IMG/VR virus record: IMGVR_UViG_3300026512_000028
Span: 1-41,911 of that record
From: a virus
DNA length: 41,911 nt
Strand: one strand, 5' to 3'
Shown piece by piece: positions 25,860 to 35,378 of this stretch. Position numbers and translations under genes: made by a program. The notes under the pieces are model-generated. The model was not told the DNA's origin. It ran no database searches and saw only the letters and a list, made by a program, of their open reading frames with translations. Position 1 is the first letter of the stretch; every line of letters starts with the position of its first letter.

Positions 25860-26576
25860 CTAATTTTCAAATAATTTATCTATTTTATCACATATATTAT
25901 TTTCTGATAAATTTAAGCTTTCTACAATATTTAATTGCTCTTCAAACTCTTTGTCTATATTATCATTAGACAAATTTAATTCTTGTCTTTTAGTATAAAG
26001 ATATAATTTTGGATCTATAAAGAAATCAAATATATCTATAAGCATTTGATAATCTTCTTTTTGTATTGTCCCTGTATAAAAAACATCAAGAAGTTTTTCT
26101 TTCAAATATCTTGAGTCTTCTATAAAATATTCTATTATATCTAAAAACTCTTGTTGAGCTTCAGAATCAGGTTCATAATATTGTAATTCAAGAAATAGAT
26201 GAGTTTCTATAGATGATAATCCTAATAATGCATCATTCACTTCATCAATACTTAATGGAATTAATGGATTTCTTTCATCAAACTCATCTTGATAATAATA
26301 ATATTGATAAGCACCAGCCTCAGATAATTTTTCTGTTCTTAGAGAATTAAATCTACCTAATGCTCTATGAAATCTTTTTCCCTGAGTTGAATTATGCCAC
26401 TTTTTTAATCCTTTCAATAGAGAATTTTTATTTCTTCTCCATTGATTCTTCATATTTCTTTGCTTTTTTCTATCTTTTGACTTTTTTATCAACTCTAAGC
26501 TTTTTCTTATTGCTGATTCAGATAAATTCAAAATTTCAAATTGAATTTTATCTTCTTCTCTTTTAAACTTCATCAT
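25860..26576 (-). CDS. Prohead core-like protein downstream of the portal gene (gp67/gp68 position)
   Basis: This 238-residue protein starts at an ATG overlapping the last codons of the portal gene. Two adjacent ATGs (26576 and 26573) follow GAAGG in the portal end; I take 26576. The N-terminal ~80 residues are very basic (KKSKDRKKQRNMKNQWRRNK, then KRFHRALGRFNSLR). The rest is acidic and helical. The site LSE-AGAYQ could be a prohead protease cut. In T4 the small core genes 67 and 68 sit between portal and protease, so this is the positional counterpart; sequence identity is not claimed. Confidence 0.55.
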   Translation of the reverse strand: MMKFKREEDKIQFEILNLSESAIRKSLELIKKSKDRKKQRNMKNQWRRNKNSLLKGLKKWHNSTQGKRFHRALGRFNSLRTEKLSEAGAYQYYYYQDEFDERNPLIPLSIDEVNDALLGLSSIETHLFLELQYYEPDSEAQQEFLDIIEYFIEDSRYLKEKLLDVFYTGTIQKEDYQMLIDIFDFFIDPKLYLYTKRQELNLSNDNIDKEFEEQLNIVESLNLSENNICDKIDKLFEN

Positions 26577-28056
26577 TATTACCTTCATCTGAATTTGAAT
26601 TTGATTTTTCTTTAACAGACAATATATCAAATCCTACAATATTTGCAAAATTTTCATTTATTAAATTGACATAATTATCCCAATCTATTTCCACATTTTC
26701 ATTATCTTCAAAGTTTGCTATATAGCTATTAAAATTGTCAAGCATACTAACCATTAAATCTATATATTCTAATTTTTCTAAATCATCTATATTTAAAACA
26801 TTTAAAAATGATATTTTAATATTTTCTTTTATAAAGTATGTCAATCCTTTATTATTTAAATGAATAATAAACAGTCTTTGTAACCCTTCAATAAGAGAAG
26901 ATTGAATAGATTTTAATTTTTTTGTATACCTTATATTTTGTTTTATTACATCAGTTTTTATATTGTCTTCATCTATTATATTGGAAGGAATTCCAATAGT
27001 TGTTAATATCATTTTTCTAATATCATTTATCTTTTCAAACATAGAATCATAATTATCATCTGCAGAAAAATCTTGAGAAGCAAGTTCACCTTTGTCTCCC
27101 CAGTTAGGTATGACTTTTACGTTCCCAACTTTTGATTGTAAATTTTTTAAAATTTCTTCAGAATTACTTCCTGACGTATGATGGCCAACATTTAATGTAT
27201 TATTTATCATTTTTTCAAATGCTTTAGCAATATTTTGAGCATCTGTTGGTTTTGTTGTTGCGGGGACACTGACTGATACAAGCTTAGTTTTTAATGCATC
27301 ATTTACAAATTTCATAGGAAGTAAGTTTTCAAAAAATTGTAATTCATCAATTAAGCCATAAACAGGATATAAAATACTTCTTCCCATTTTAAAAATAGCA
27401 TTTTTTTCATCTACACCTTCAACCTTTACTTTTAATCTTTGAGAATTTAGAGAAAAGTAAACATATTTATTTGGAGAAACTGATAATATTTTATTATCTT
27501 CAAATTTTAAATAATATCCTATATCACTATCTTTGAATACCGGTATTATTTTTGTAATATCAACATCATCGTGTATATTTATAACTCCATTTTCTTGAGG
27601 ATAAAGACTTATGCTTTTTACATCCAATCTTAAAAAATATTCTCCATAAAATAATAAGTCAACAACGACATCTTTTAAAAGTTTTTCTATTTCAAATTCT
27701 TCAATAAAATCCTCTAAGATTTTTGTTGCTCCCTCATCAATTTCTTTTTCTTGAGTTAAAACTTTAACAGAAAAAATACTGTTTTCTTGAGATGTAGGAT
27801 TTAATGCATCGTCCATAAGTCTATCAATAATTAATTGAGAAAAATAAAAATTTTTAATATTATCTATTGATTCAATTATTCCTTCTTTTGTTTGAGAAAT
27901 ATTAAAAAAATTATATATTAATGTTTTTTCTAACCCGTCATCTTTTTGCATTGATTGAACAACACCGATACTTGGATCTGCCTTAACTTTCCATTGTCCA
28001 AATAATTGAGTTTGAAGATTTTTAAAATGATCTCCTAGAGATTTAAAAATTCCCAT
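26563..28056 (-). CDS. Portal protein, gp20-like
   Basis: This 497-residue protein matches the gp20 portal family by length (T4 524) and features: a N-terminal helical region with a LIYNFFNISQTKEGI segment, a VVDLLFYGEYFLRLD-type motif near residue 135-150, the LYPVYGLIDELQFFENLLPM helix, and a C-terminal IGIPSNIIDEDNI motif before the long helix KKLKSIQSSLIEGLQRLF. The dodecamer forms the DNA gate on the head and binds the terminase. It lies between terminase and core genes as in T4. The ATG at 28056 follows AAAAGGAATTTT. Confidence 0.85.
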   Translation of the reverse strand: MGIFKSLGDHFKNLQTQLFGQWKVKADPSIGVVQSMQKDDGLEKTLIYNFFNISQTKEGIIESIDNIKNFYFSQLIIDRLMDDALNPTSQENSIFSVKVLTQEKEIDEGATKILEDFIEEFEIEKLLKDVVVDLLFYGEYFLRLDVKSISLYPQENGVINIHDDVDITKIIPVFKDSDIGYYLKFEDNKILSVSPNKYVYFSLNSQRLKVKVEGVDEKNAIFKMGRSILYPVYGLIDELQFFENLLPMKFVNDALKTKLVSVSVPATTKPTDAQNIAKAFEKMINNTLNVGHHTSGSNSEEILKNLQSKVGNVKVIPNWGDKGELASQDFSADDNYDSMFEKINDIRKMILTTIGIPSNIIDEDNIKTDVIKQNIRYTKKLKSIQSSLIEGLQRLFIIHLNNKGLTYFIKENIKISFLNVLNIDDLEKLEYIDLMVSMLDNFNSYIANFEDNENVEIDWDNYVNLINENFANIVGFDILSVKEKSNSNSDEGNNDEV

Positions 28057-28092: not shown

Positions 28093-30039
28093 TTACATAC
28101 CAAAAATTTTCTTTATTATGTCGTCTTCCCCATAAGATAAGTTCATAAGCTCTTCTACAAAATCTTCTTCTGTTAATGGACTATAATCCATATTGAATAA
28201 AGCGTTATAAACTTGACAAACTGCATCAGCAATATCTTTACTACCATCTGTTCCATCAGGAAAATATTCAGGGTGATCTATTTTTTTAGCATCTTCTTTT
28301 AAAAATATAAGCTCTTTTTCCAATAAAGAATTTACAGGTAATTCAATAAGATTTTCATAAAGAGCATTTTTAAATACGTAATATGGCTCTTTTTTTCTGT
28401 CAACAGAATGTTGTATAGCATTAAATCCTAATTCAGACATTATTGAAATAAAATCGTATGATTGAAATGTATCTGCATAAATTGTGTCTATTCTTATATT
28501 TAACTTTTCTATTAAATCTAAAATAAATTTTCTTACTCTTGAAAAAATAATTTTTTGTCCAGAAGCAGGTTTTAAAGAAGTAGCAAAAATAATATCTATT
28601 ACCTTTTCTCCATTTTCTTTTATTTCCTTTATACATCCTAAAGAAATTCCTAGTTTATCTTGAGAATAAGCTAAATCCAGACCTATAGAAAATTGTTTAC
28701 CTTTATAATTTTTCACTAATTCTTCTAATATTTCTAAATGAAAGTAATTTATTAAAGGTATAGAATTATCATATTCTATTATAGTATTAACAGGATTTTT
28801 ATGTTTAAATGCTTTAGTAATTGAAGATTTATCAGAAATAAATGTGCTTGAACTAACAACAGGTATCCCTAAAATATCTCCTATAGATTGTCTAAGATTT
28901 TGTTTAAATTGAGTATAATAATCGTAAGGAACCTTTTCTACATTGTCAGGATATTTTTCTAAAAAATATTTTATCTCGTCTTCATTTTCTAAAATTTTTG
29001 GCTCTAAATTATATGTTCCAGTAAATACATAAAAAATATTTTTTGAATAGTTTATTTTTTCACTTAAAACTTCAAATTGTTTTGCTCTTATTTCTAAAAG
29101 AGGATTTTTAATTGTAATATTTTCGTTTTCATCGTCATCAAGAGTTTTTTTAACTTGCTCAATGAGTGAAGCATCTGTATCAGCAGAAGATACTATAATT
29201 AAATGTCCAGGAATGTATTTTTTATATTTGTTTTCAGATAAAAACCTTGAAGGAAGCCTGTTAATTGCTTCAGTGACATATGCTTTTGCTTGTTTAGGCT
29301 GAGGATGCCTATTAAGTTCATCCATTAAAACGCTAAAAACTGCTCTACCTGTTAATTGTCTTCTATACGGAGCAACAGGTAAAATATCTATACCTTTTTC
29401 AAACATTGACGTTTTAGTTTTATTGTTTAGTTTACTTAAAAAGAATGGACTATTCCTTATCATACCTAAAAGCAATGCAAAGTTTATAGATTCAGAGTTA
29501 TCTCTTGTTGAATTTGAAACAATAAAATCTATTTTTGTATTATGAGATAATTTATAAAATGCTTGAGGATTTTCTAAGCATAAAACATGAGCTAAGTCAT
29601 AAAGAAAAATGATGTTTCCCAAAAATGTGTTATGGTGAATACTCCCATCAGGAGTAATATATAAATGTGGATTATCTATATTAAAATCATATACAATTTC
29701 GTTATTGTTAAGTTTTTCTTTTTTAATCAATTTATATTTTTTTCCATCAATATTATCTACATAACAAGCATTTTTTATAAGTTTTTCTTCCCCATTTTCT
29801 AATATTATGTGATTTTCAGATGCTTTTATTGATTTTCCATTTTCTAAAAAATATTCATAAGTATTAGACTTTTTAGTAACAAATGCGTTTATTTTTGTTA
29901 AATTACCATTTGGTGTTTTTATAAAAATTTTTTTATTAATAAAATGTGTTTGACCTATTTTATTATTATATTCATTTTCTTCGTGTTTTATATCTAAAGC
30001 ATCAAAAAGTTTTTTAATTGAAATTTTTATTTTTTTCAT
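28093..30039 (-). CDS. Large terminase C-part: C-intein (1-137) plus C-extein (138-648)
   Basis: Residues 1-137 are the C-terminal part of a split intein. They contain an intein block B-like SENHIIL with His77, a block F-like VYDFNIDNPHLYI, and the terminal GSIHHN with His136-Asn137; Thr138 is the first extein residue. Residues 138-648 are the rest of a gp17-type terminase. This part has Walker B (VFSVLMDE, Asp240-Glu241), a coupling SSADTD segment near 285, and an RNase H-like nuclease with Asp455 (FSIGLDLA), Asp523 (IYADT) and Asp602/Asp605 near the end. After splicing with the product of 30146..30505 it would give a 604-residue TerL; T4 gp17 is 610. The ATG has only a weak GGAA upstream, and a stop lies 3 nt before it. 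Confidence 0.92.
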   Translation of the reverse strand: MKKIKISIKKLFDALDIKHEENEYNNKIGQTHFINKKIFIKTPNGNLTKINAFVTKKSNTYEYFLENGKSIKASENHIILENGEEKLIKNACYVDNIDGKKYKLIKKEKLNNNEIVYDFNIDNPHLYITPDGSIHHNTFLGNIIFLYDLAHVLCLENPQAFYKLSHNTKIDFIVSNSTRDNSESINFALLLGMIRNSPFFLSKLNNKTKTSMFEKGIDILPVAPYRRQLTGRAVFSVLMDELNRHPQPKQAKAYVTEAINRLPSRFLSENKYKKYIPGHLIIVSSADTDASLIEQVKKTLDDDENENITIKNPLLEIRAKQFEVLSEKINYSKNIFYVFTGTYNLEPKILENEDEIKYFLEKYPDNVEKVPYDYYTQFKQNLRQSIGDILGIPVVSSSTFISDKSSITKAFKHKNPVNTIIEYDNSIPLINYFHLEILEELVKNYKGKQFSIGLDLAYSQDKLGISLGCIKEIKENGEKVIDIIFATSLKPASGQKIIFSRVRKFILDLIEKLNIRIDTIYADTFQSYDFISIMSELGFNAIQHSVDRKKEPYYVFKNALYENLIELPVNSLLEKELIFLKEDAKKIDHPEYFPDGTDGSKDIADAVCQVYNALFNMDYSPLTEEDFVEELMNLSYGEDDIIKKIFGM

Positions 30040-30042
30040 TGA

Positions 30043-30108
30043 TTATTTCCAGCATATTTTTTCTAAAATTTCTTTTTTTATTCTTATATGTAACAAATCA
30101 TTTTTCAT
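30043..30108 (-). CDS. 21-codon ORF between the split-intein terminase halves
   Basis: ATG at 30108 is preceded by a strong AGGAG (spacing 7). The frame ends at TAA 30045-30043, three bases before the ATG of the C-intein gene and in the same frame. The product is Lys/Ile-rich. It could be a leader peptide that delivers ribosomes for reinitiation at the terminase C-part, or a remnant of a longer ORF cut by a nonsense change. No homology is visible. Confidence 0.45.
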   Translation of the reverse strand: MKNDLLHIRIKKEILEKICWK

Positions 30109-30145
30109 TTAATAACTCCTTTAAAAAATTTTCGGAATTTGCTCT

Positions 30146-30505
30146 TCAAGAATATTCTTCTAATCCCAATTCTTTTATATCTTCTTCTGACATATAAAAT
30201 TCAAGTTCTTGAGATTTTTCAAGACATTTACCAGTTCCTATAGCTGAATTATTTATAATAATATAATTATCTGTAAAAACATTTTCTCTAATTTTGTTTA
30301 ATTCGGGAAAGGGCGTGGGAAACATCTTAGCTAAAAGTTTCATCCAGAATTTATAAACGCCTTTTCCTCCACTTAAAGATTTTCCTAAATAATAATCATT
30401 TGACAAAAATTCTATAATATCAGGAGGAACTTCCTCATACCCATGCTTTTTTGCATATTGTGTAAAAAGTTTTTTAAATTCTGATTTTGAAATTGTTTTT
30501 CCCAT
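30146..30505 (-). CDS. Large terminase N-part: N-extein (1-93) plus 26-residue N-intein
   Basis: Residues 1-93 are the N-terminal adenine-binding and Walker A part of a gp17-type terminase, ending SAIGTGK. Residue 94 is a Cys that starts an intein block A-like sequence (CLEKSQELEFYMSEED) and runs only 26 residues to the stop. The C-part in the next gene begins its extein with TFLG, so the junction reconstructs GTGK-T, the Walker A P-loop. Neither product can hydrolyse ATP alone. The gene has AAAGGAG before ATG 30505. The short N-fragment is like the atypically split AceL-TerL intein, also found in terminase. Confidence 0.92.
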   Translation of the reverse strand: MGKTISKSEFKKLFTQYAKKHGYEEVPPDIIEFLSNDYYLGKSLSGGKGVYKFWMKLLAKMFPTPFPELNKIRENVFTDNYIIINNSAIGTGKCLEKSQELEFYMSEEDIKELGLEEYS

Positions 30506-33569: not shown

Positions 33570-34646
33570 CTATATTTTATTTATATCTAAACTTGCCTCT
33601 TTAATAAACTCTTTTCTTTTATCTGTTTTGTTTTTTGCAAGCCAATCATCTAAAAGTTTTTCATCAATTTCATCAAGTTTCACAATCATATTATCTATCC
33701 CATCTTTATTAATAATTTCAAGAAGCTGTTTTTTAGTCCATCTACCAAGACCTTTGGCATATTGAACCTCTCTATTTGGAATATCTTTCATAGAATACCA
33801 CCAATTTTTTAATTTTCCATTTTTCACTTCAAAGGCAATAGGCGTATAAAATCTACAAATTTTATCTTTAAAATTAGGTAAATATTTTATAATATTTCCA
33901 ATCAAAAGTAAATTTATTTTAAATCCGTCCAAGTCTTGATCTGAAGCTATAATTATTTTTTCAAAATTGAAACTATTACAAATAGTGATCAAATCCTTTA
34001 ACTCTGTATTTGAATTAACTTTGCTCACAGAAACTTCCCAGGCATTTAATGGCACACCTTTTAATTCAAAATAAGCATATTCATTTCTACCCAAAATATT
34101 CATAAGACCACTTCTCGCAGAAGTTCCCTCACATACTAATAAATATTTGTTATTTCTAATTGCTGGGAAAAATTTTTCAGAAGTTATTTTCTTTTCTTTT
34201 TTAGTTAATTTTTTAAGCTCAGCATTTTCTTTAGCTTGTTGTTTAAGAGAAAAATATTCTGTTATAGAAAGCATTAAATTTTCATCTTTTAATAATTGCT
34301 TTATTATTTTATCCCAATCAATATCTTTGAAAAATTCTTCTAAATCTTTTTGAGAATTAGAAATTTCTATTTTTTCTTGAGAGCTGAATTCAAGCTTTGG
34401 AAAAAATCTCATTACAAGAAGAATTTTCATTTTATTTCTAATGTCTGCAGGCTTTATTGAAGGAAATTTTTTAAGAAGCTTTTCTCTAATTTTAGGAACA
34501 ATTTTATTATTAATAATGTAAGAAATTGGTGTTCCACCATTTCTTACATAAAGTCCATTTACAATCAAGCACTGTGAAAAATCATCACTATCATTATGCT
34601 TTATTTCAAAATAAAAATTGTCTTTTTTTATATTTCCATACTTCAC
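33570..34646 (-). CDS. Topoisomerase II large subunit, transducer + TOPRIM part
   Basis: This 358-residue protein starts within the transducer domain (LIVNGLYVRNGGTPISYI) and carries the TOPRIM domain, with Glu173 in LLVCEGTSARSG and the DxDxD set Asp236, Asp238 and Asp240 in ASDQDLDGF. It is the equivalent of the end of T4 gp39 plus gp60. The start is GTG at 34646 with AAGGAG upstream; an overlapping ATG two bases earlier is followed at once by a stop. It binds gp52-like protein and metal for cleavage. Confidence 0.88.
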   Translation of the reverse strand: MKYGNIKKDNFYFEIKHNDSDDFSQCLIVNGLYVRNGGTPISYIINNKIVPKIREKLLKKFPSIKPADIRNKMKILLVMRFFPKLEFSSQEKIEISNSQKDLEEFFKDIDWDKIIKQLLKDENLMLSITEYFSLKQQAKENAELKKLTKKEKKITSEKFFPAIRNNKYLLVCEGTSARSGLMNILGRNEYAYFELKGVPLNAWEVSVSKVNSNTELKDLITICNSFNFEKIIIASDQDLDGFKINLLLIGNIIKYLPNFKDKICRFYTPIAFEVKNGKLKNWWYSMKDIPNREVQYAKGLGRWTKKQLLEIINKDGIDNMIVKLDEIDEKLLDDWLAKNKTDKRKEFIKEASLDINKI

Positions 34647-34655
34647 ATAAACTCC

Positions 34656-35378
34656 TTAAAAATCAATCTCTGTCGATTTTATTAATTTTTGATTGAAATA
34701 AAACTTAATTTCAGGATATGTTAATGACAGCATAATTATCCTACTATAAATAGCCACCTTTTCATTTTCTGTAAATTTATTAACTTCAAATCTACCAAAG
34801 TCGGGCTCTACATAAACTTCAACACCTGATTTTGTTGTTTTCTTTTCTTGAGTTTTTATTTTTGTAGCATTTTCTATACTTGTATAAATTATTTCTTTAC
34901 CTGAGTTTCCATTTTTTCCAACAAAAACTTTACTAAAATAATTCGTTAGTGCAGCACCCATTCCATTAGCACCTGCTGATTTTCTATCCGAATCATCAAA
35001 ATTGCTTCCAGCCTTTAATGTCCCCCAAGCTGATTCACACATCCAGACTTCTTTATTTAAAATCTTATTAAAATGTTTTGTGTTGGGTATTCCAACACCA
35101 TTATCTTTTACGCTAAATGATTTATCATCTAAGACAATGTCTATTCTCGGATTACCATTAAAATTATTATCCACAAAGGCATCCACAGAATTATCTAAAA
35201 TTTCTTCAAAAATCTTAACAAGTCCTGGAACATATTCAAGTTCTGTCTCGACAAATTTATTGTCTCTTACTATATATCTTTTTTCTTGTATCTTTTTGAC
35301 TGCCCCAATATAAACATTGGGTCTTTTTAAAGCATGCTCTCTGTCATCTAAGATTTCTATTTTTCTTTGCTTTGACAA
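34656..35378 (-). CDS. Topoisomerase II large subunit, GHKL ATPase part
   Basis: This 240-residue protein is the N-terminal GHKL ATPase domain of a type II topoisomerase. It has EEILDNSVDAF (Glu59, Asp62, Asn63), KDNGVGIPN (92-99) and the lid SAGANGMGAALTN (136-146). It ends just after the start of the transducer, with TYPEIKFYFN. In T4 the large subunit is cut much later, within TOPRIM. Here the cut comes after about 240 residues, with a 9-nt gap and a fresh Shine-Dalgarno for the next gene. An ATP-gated dimer would have to assemble from three proteins. Confidence 0.88.
   Translation of the reverse strand: MSKQRKIEILDDREHALKRPNVYIGAVKKIQEKRYIVRDNKFVETELEYVPGLVKIFEEILDNSVDAFVDNNFNGNPRIDIVLDDKSFSVKDNGVGIPNTKHFNKILNKEVWMCESAWGTLKAGSNFDDSDRKSAGANGMGAALTNYFSKVFVGKNGNSGKEIIYTSIENATKIKTQEKKTTKSGVEVYVEPDFGRFEVNKFTENEKVAIYSRIIMLSLTYPEIKFYFNQKLIKSTEIDF

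What the first reader, a model, noticed from the sequence alone, without database searches (positions are those of the whole stretch)
28093..30505. Naturally split intein cut into the Walker A motif of the large terminase, with a 26-residue N-intein
Sequence shows two adjacent genes: one ends GTGK then a Cys-starting 26-residue tail; the other has 137 residues ending HHN followed by TFLG and a complete terminase C-part. Joining them recreates GTGK-T (Walker A) and a 604-residue TerL, close to T4 gp17. Established knowledge: intein blocks A, B, F and G with Cys1, block-B His and the terminal His-Asn; the AceL-TerL intein is an atypically split terminase intein with a similarly short N-fragment. 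Inference: packaging ATPase activity is impossible before trans-splicing, so packaging may be timed or gated by splicing.
Basis: partly seen in the sequence, partly recalled or inferred. Interest (0 to 1): 0.93.

Follow-up and report, generated by a model that had tools for sequence, protein, structure and literature searches.

The report
Split mobile intein interrupts phage terminase
In this phage fragment the gene for the DNA-packaging motor is cut in two inside its ATP-binding loop by a natural split intein, a self-removing protein element that should join the halves, and at least six other related phage loci carry the same element while close relatives lack it, which shows that it is a mobile passenger and not a fixed part of the motor.

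Summary
Gene N (window 30505-30146, -) ends ...AIGTGK plus a 26-residue Cys1 tail. Gene C (30039-28093, -) begins with a 137-residue domain ending SIHHN, then TFLG... The joined 604 aa match uninterrupted TerLs end to end; the closest (72-76% over the C-extein) have the empty site ...GK|T. The C-domain is an intein by profile (PDB inteins, E down to 4e-8) and by predicted fold. It is no frameshift artefact: six other IMG/VR loci (L102, L105, L106, L108, L109, L114) carry the same intein at the same Walker A site. In five of them both halves are seen, on separate genes, with 26-28-residue N-inteins, under purifying selection (dN/dS about 0.1). In three, a homing endonuclease and a second gene lie between the halves; L114 lacks the endonuclease, L102 and the window lack both. 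Intein and host histories disagree (intein 61%, C-extein 37% identical to L102; p-AU 4e-5), and L109/L110 are 98.7% identical neighbours with and without it. So it is a mobile, atypically split intein of the fractured-gene kind, split before alpha-1 (S1-like, as VidaL), unlike AceL-TerL (S2). 'Close to T4 gp17' and 'timed packaging' are not supported. Splicing itself is untested.

The parts
30227..30505 (-). TerL N-extein, 93 aa, ending at the Walker A lysine (AIGTGK)
   Evidence: aligns with uninterrupted TerLs L016/L017
30149..30226 (-). N-intein, 26 aa, Cys1, acidic tail (net charge -7)
   Evidence: 58-69% identical to N-inteins of L102 and L106; same family in L105, L108, L114
30040..30145 (-). 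106-bp gap between the halves, the place where three relatives hold an endonuclease and a second gene
30043..30108 (-). 21-codon ORF MKNDLLHIRIKKEILEKICWK with AAAGGAG upstream; stop 3 nt before the C gene's ATG, same frame; probable translational coupling (inferred)
29629..30039 (-). C-intein, 137 aa (SxxH block B at 74-77, D118, H136-N137)
28096..29628 (-). TerL C-extein, 511 aa, Thr+1; Walker B DE 103-104, nuclease acids D318/D386/D465 (C-extein numbering) conserved
26563..28056 (-). next gene, 497 aa, probable portal protein by position (no family match)
   Evidence: annotated portals lie next to or near terL in Rhizobium phage TM21B and Maribacter phage Colly_1

Best explanation
The two genes are the halves of one phage large terminase interrupted at Walker A (K|T) by a naturally and atypically split, class 1-type intein. 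Gene N makes TerL 1-93 plus a 26-residue N-intein (beta-1/beta-2 and an acidic tail). Gene C makes the rest of the intein plus TerL 94-604. The acidic N-intein most likely docks on the basic start of the C-intein (MKKIKI), completing the Hint fold; Cys1, Thr+1 and Asn137 then splice the halves into a 604-residue TerL with an intact GTGKT loop. The split intein is a mobile cassette: in relatives it carries a homing endonuclease and an extra gene between the halves, and the window holds a stripped, endonuclease-free copy. Shown by sequence: site, empty sites, recurrence, conservation of both halves, selection, horizontal transfer, endonuclease presence/absence. Inferred: docking, splicing, coupled translation through the 21-codon ORF, homing as the mode of transfer.
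For: Empty sites: L016 ...SAISTGK|TTVSNIIFLYDLAHV and L017 ...SGIGVGK|TFIGNIIFLYDLAHV, 76% and 72% C-extein identity. Same split intein at the same site in L102, L105, L106, L108, L109, L114, with gaps of 580-2446 bp where measured. C-intein of the window 50-61% identical to the family's; N-intein 58-69% against L102 and L106. Purifying selection between L106 and L114: dN/dS 0.09 (N-intein), 0.11 (C-intein). Profile match to inteins in PDB, best E 3.7e-8. Predicted fold: Foldseek ranks 1-31 all inteins. Split-intein relative in the Vibrio phage vB_VmeM-32 helicase, 31% over 167 aa of N+C with the same split point, and a cis relative in a clamp-loader-like P-loop PGTGK|C...CHN|TSLAK of LR756508, 30% over 138 aa. 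Horizontal transfer: intein 61% vs extein 37% to L102, carriers not one clade p-AU 4.4e-5; L109/L110 98.65% over 4.9 kb starting at the insertion site. Endonucleases related to the one in the Vibrio cassette, E 1e-10 to 3e-14.
Against: No splicing experiment. Intein profiles hit the window's own sequence only below curated cut-offs (PF14890 17-18 bits of 35.8; TIGR01445 12 of 24.5). The structure model is of moderate confidence (pLDDT 62.9, last 24 residues under 50). The intein gene tree is too short to resolve. Only one copy of the window's own version was found.
Confidence: 0.93

Rival explanations
1. The split intein has been kept as a switch: TerL becomes an ATPase only after both halves accumulate and splice, which times or gates DNA packaging.
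For: The interruption removes the Walker A Thr and everything after it from the N-part. The window's copy has no endonuclease in the gap or elsewhere in the 41.9 kb (no tblastn match) yet both halves are intact. Inteins prefer active-site loops, and TerL splicing has been proposed to be needed for complex formation (PMC5050341).
Against: Relatives without the intein have uninterrupted TerLs, including one 98.7% identical to a carrier. The cassette is mobile. No conditional feature was seen.
Confidence: 0.07
2. The two ORFs are one cis-spliced intein gene broken by a sequencing or assembly error.
For: The two genes are close and on the same strand; L102 does show a frame break just before Walker A.
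Against: The window gap has its own start signal and stops. In five further loci the N-intein also ends in a stop after 26-28 residues and the C-intein starts anew, with up to two whole genes between.
Confidence: 0.01
3. The halves are decayed and inactive; the working TerL is supplied elsewhere.
For: The complete genome is not available (IMG/VR fragment); one relative (L102) has a frame break.
Against: Splice-site and catalytic residues are intact in the window, TerL ATPase and nuclease motifs are conserved, and purifying selection acts on both intein halves in relatives. No second TerL in the record.
Confidence: 0.04

Closest known systems
AceL-TerL and GOS-TerL split inteins (Cat consensus; PMC11766414, PMC13014065; PDB 6dsl)
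   Same: Naturally split inteins in phage TerL with short N-inteins (25 and 37 aa)
   Different: They are split after helix alpha-1 (S2) and use Cys+1; here Thr+1/Ser+1, and CatC aligns only from residue 26 of this C-intein, so the split is earlier
VidaL (16 aa) and PolB16 OarG (15 aa) split inteins, S1 split (PMC13014065, PMC10189870)
   Same: Split directly after beta-2, large C-intein; closest in split position
   Different: Here the N-intein is 26-28 aa with a conserved acidic tail; host gene TerL. No VidaL sequence was available here for direct alignment
Fractured-gene split inteins with a free-standing homing endonuclease between the halves (Dassa et al. 2009, cited in PMC6892783 and PMC13014065; paper itself not held)
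   Same: Gene order N-part, endonuclease, C-part in L105, L106, L108; the endonuclease is related to that in Vibrio phage vB_VmeM-32
   Different: The window, L102 and L114 lack the endonuclease; a second, unidentified gene is part of the cassette in L105, L106, L108 and L114
Mycobacteriophage TerL1-a inteins (PMC5050341)
   Same: Inserted between Walker A Lys and Thr of TerL
   Different: Contiguous (cis) inteins, another TerL family
Campylobacter phage F379 TerL (L098)
   Same: TerL cut in Walker A (QPRQ|SSKST), N-intein 30 aa on its own gene, endonuclease gene between the halves
   Different: T4-type TerL, other insertion point, weak intein similarity (E about 1 in the phage search)

Membership tests
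Intein (Hint-fold splicing domain) | Catalytic residues: Cys/Ser1, block B His, terminal Asn, Cys/Ser/Thr+1 | tested here: met
   C1, S74xxH77, D118, H136-N137, T+1; kept in the relatives
Intein (Hint-fold splicing domain) | Profile or fold similarity to known inteins | tested here: met
   Family profile vs PDB E 3.7e-8; Foldseek ranks 1-31 all inteins, best 4e-4; single-sequence Pfam/NCBIfam scores below cut-off
Intein (Hint-fold splicing domain) | Exteins join to a complete, conserved protein | tested here: met
   Empty-site TerLs L016, L017, L110, L112
Intein (Hint-fold splicing domain) | Splicing activity | not testable with these tools
   needs co-expression
Naturally split intein | Halves encoded by separate genes, not a sequencing break | tested here: met
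   N- and C-genes separated in the window and in L102, L105, L106, L108, L114
S1-type atypical split (as VidaL) | Split between beta-2 and alpha-1 | tested here: met
   By alignment with the cis intein of L095 and split intein of L096 and with CatC; no experimental structure
S2-type atypical split (AceL/GOS-TerL) | Split after alpha-1 | tested here: not met
   CatC begins opposite residue 26 of this C-intein; predicted helix 8-14 lies in the C-part
Fractured-gene cassette | Homing endonuclease gene between the halves | tested here: not met
   Absent in the window (gap 106 bp; no match to related endonucleases in the window), present in L105, L106, L108
T4 gp17-type TerL | Detectable sequence similarity to gp17 | tested here: not met
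   No PDB hit for the TerL profile; PF03237 not reached

The most novel reading that the evidence does not exclude
The endonuclease-free split intein in the window is retained because trans-splicing gates assembly of the packaging ATPase, i.e. a selfish cassette turned into a packaging timer.
Probability: 0.07. Interest if true: 0.85.

Novelty: new member of a known kind. Interest (0 to 1): 0.52.

Why it matters
It adds a family of at least seven loci to the few known natural split inteins with short N-parts, with closely matched loci with and without the intein and with and without the endonuclease. That makes the spread and persistence of an element that must work in two pieces directly testable. 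The 26-residue N-intein, short enough for peptide synthesis, with a Cys1/Thr+1 (or Ser+1) junction, is a candidate tool for protein labelling.

Tried and rejected
Single-protein scans of viral contigs with P0002, P0001 and the C-intein found nothing; alignments did. A genome-contig scan found no relative, so no host or prophage. Rfam: no intron in the window. A single-sequence structure prediction was useless (pLDDT 39.5). The 21-codon ORF could not be traced to the endonuclease or the second cassette gene (short hits only). phrog_19168 (59 aa, E 8e-4 on residues 68-105 of gene N) may be another family of split N-parts but its members could not be listed. The intein tree does not by itself reject one clade for the L102/L105/L106 inteins (p-AU 0.37); transfer rests on identity levels and the extein tree. 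Key papers on GOS-TerL, fractured genes, VidaL and Cat are not held.

Full report
OBSERVATION. The window is a 41,911-base IMG/VR viral fragment. On the minus strand, gene N (30505-30146) encodes 119 aa: 93 aa ending NNSAIGTGK, then CLEKSQELEFYMSEEDIKELGLEEYS and a stop. Gene C (30039-28093) encodes 648 aa: 137 aa ending SIHHN, then TFLG and 507 more residues. The 106-bp gap holds a 21-codon ORF (30108-30043) with AAAGGAG seven bases upstream, in frame with gene C and ending three bases before its ATG. Gene C itself has a weaker ribosome-binding site, whereas the relatives' C-genes have AAGGAG-like sites, so coupled translation through the small ORF is likely (inference).

THE HOST GENE. The joined 604 residues align end to end with uninterrupted large terminases: Walker A, Walker B (DE), the coupling-motif region and the three nuclease acids are all present. 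The nearest relatives, L015/L016 and L017 (76% and 72% over the C-extein), have the empty site...SAISTGK|TTVSNIIF and ...SGIGVGK|TFIGNIIF. Among about 75 TerLs whose Walker A region was read, none other is cut at K|T; L040 and L069 have what look like contiguous inteins a few residues upstream. The TerL is far from T4 gp17: the family profile finds no PDB chain, L017 matches PHROG terminase families and PF03237 only below cut-off.

IT IS AN INTEIN. The window's sequence alone gives weak hits (PF14890 E 0.002-0.005; gp41-1 intein E 8e-4). A profile of the family (A6, which also holds one ribonucleotide reductase intein, L103) hits PDB inteins at E 3.7e-8 and at about 1e-7 for three others, over residues 56-137. 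An AlphaFold2 model from five sequences (pLDDT 62.9) matches inteins at Foldseek ranks 1-31, including gp41-1, Npu DnaE and PolB1, with PolB16 and Cat further down. Cys1, SxxH, Asp118, His136-Asn137 and Thr/Ser+1 are kept.

A FAMILY AT THE SAME SITE. Alignment-based scans found six further loci with the same intein at Walker A K|T or K|S: L102, L105 (=L107), L106 (=L115), L108, L109 (which begins inside the C-intein) and L114. N-inteins are 26-28 aa and share CL..xQ(E/Q)(L/I)E...S(E/D)EDIK...LE(E/D). C-inteins are 135-140 aa and begin KKIKIPIG.LF or similar. Net charge of the N-inteins is -5 to -8; the first ten residues of the C-inteins carry +2 to +5. Between L106 and L114 dN/dS is 0.09 for the N-intein and 0.11 for the C-intein, so both halves are under selection, including the tail beyond what 15-16-residue N-inteins need.

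WHERE IT IS SPLIT. The cis intein of LR756508 (L095; a clamp-loader-like P-loop, PGTGK|C...CHN|TSLAK) aligns with N plus C of the window, placing the split in the beta-2/beta-3 region before alpha-1. The Vibrio phage vB_VmeM-32 helicase intein (L096) is split at the same point (27-aa N-intein, C-intein starting MRIDIKEL, ending GVIHHN|T; 31% over 167 aa). CatC, the AceL/GOS consensus, aligns only from residue 26. By the published definitions (PMC13014065) this is the S1 position, as VidaL and PolB16, not S2 as AceL/GOS-TerL.

MOBILITY. Gap contents differ: endonuclease plus second gene in L105, L106, L108; second gene only in L114; a 76-aa ORF in L102; the 21-codon ORF in the window. The 528-540-aa endonucleases are related to the one in the Vibrio split-intein cassette (E 1e-10 to 3e-14) and are under selection (dN/dS 0.07, L105/L108). 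Window and L102 C-inteins are 61% identical while their C-exteins are 37%; L102 and L105, with 67% C-exteins, have 52% inteins. The extein tree puts the window with intein-free L016/L017 and L102/L105/L106 together, and rejects one clade of carriers (p-AU 4.4e-5). L109 and L110 (without) are 98.65% identical over 4,891 bp starting at the insertion site. The simplest reading is horizontal spread by homing, with later loss of the endonuclease in the window lineage (inference).

HOW IT WORKS. Inferred from established class 1 intein chemistry and the anatomy: the N-intein docks, the Hint fold closes, Cys1 and Thr+1 exchange the acyl group, Asn137 cyclises, and TerL 1-604 is released. Before splicing the Walker A loop is broken. 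Gating of packaging remains possible but has no positive evidence; the intein-free near-identical relative argues that it is dispensable.

COMPARISON AND VERDICT. Every element has precedent: short-N split TerL inteins (PMC11766414), S1 splits (PMC13014065), endonuclease-split 'fractured' genes (Dassa 2009, cited in PMC13014065 and PMC6892783), and K|T inteins in TerL (PMC5050341). Their combination, the conserved acidic tail and the matched with/without loci are, to my knowledge, unreported. A new member of a known kind, of moderate interest.

Noticed in passing
window 34656-35378 and 33570-34646 (-): The topoisomerase II large subunit is split into an ATPase ORF (240 aa) and a C-terminal ORF (358 aa) 9 bp apart, with no intein visible at the break.
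   Followed up: partly
L005:2022-5141 (Gordonia phage Gmala1 TerL): A 352-residue contiguous intein-like insert at the same Walker A site (GIGVGK|Q...SHN|S) begins with Gln instead of Cys or Ser.
   Followed up: no
L011 and L014 (Listeria phage LIS04, Bacillus phage SP-15): terL is interrupted several times: a contiguous intein before the P-loop (SP-15), a second, split intein at RDIF|C...VVHN|CGLLDEVEF, and endonuclease genes between fragments.
   Followed up: partly
L098:1340-4686 (Campylobacter phage F379): TerL cut in Walker A with a 30-aa N-intein and an endonuclease gene between the halves, while Campylobacter phage CP20 has the same intein contiguous.
   Followed up: partly
L096:1-4321 (Vibrio phage vB_VmeM-32): A split intein with an endonuclease gene sits in the T4-like replicative helicase P-loop, and the neighbouring RecA-like gene is also fractured with a Hint domain.
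   Followed up: partly
L095:3944-4390 (LR756508): Contiguous mini-intein in a clamp-loader-like P-loop at GTGK|T, a relative of the window's split intein.
   Followed up: yes
L115:3908-4543, L114:3906-4541, L107:3805-4575, L108:1790-2554: A second conserved gene of unknown function (211-256 aa) travels inside the split-intein gap, next to the C-gene; no Pfam family.
   Followed up: partly
L102:1830-1890: Frame break just before Walker A in the N-part, so N-extein and N-intein are in different frames: assembly error, inactive copy or recoding.
   Followed up: no
L012:3935-4403 (Vibrio phage 150E35-1): terL reading frame breaks at Walker A (LSGCI... then IGAGKST in another frame) downstream of a NUMOD3 gene, perhaps an intron.
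   Followed up: no
L017:2051-3718: A 555-aa ORF without family match lies directly upstream of the uninterrupted terL where the window has none.
   Followed up: no
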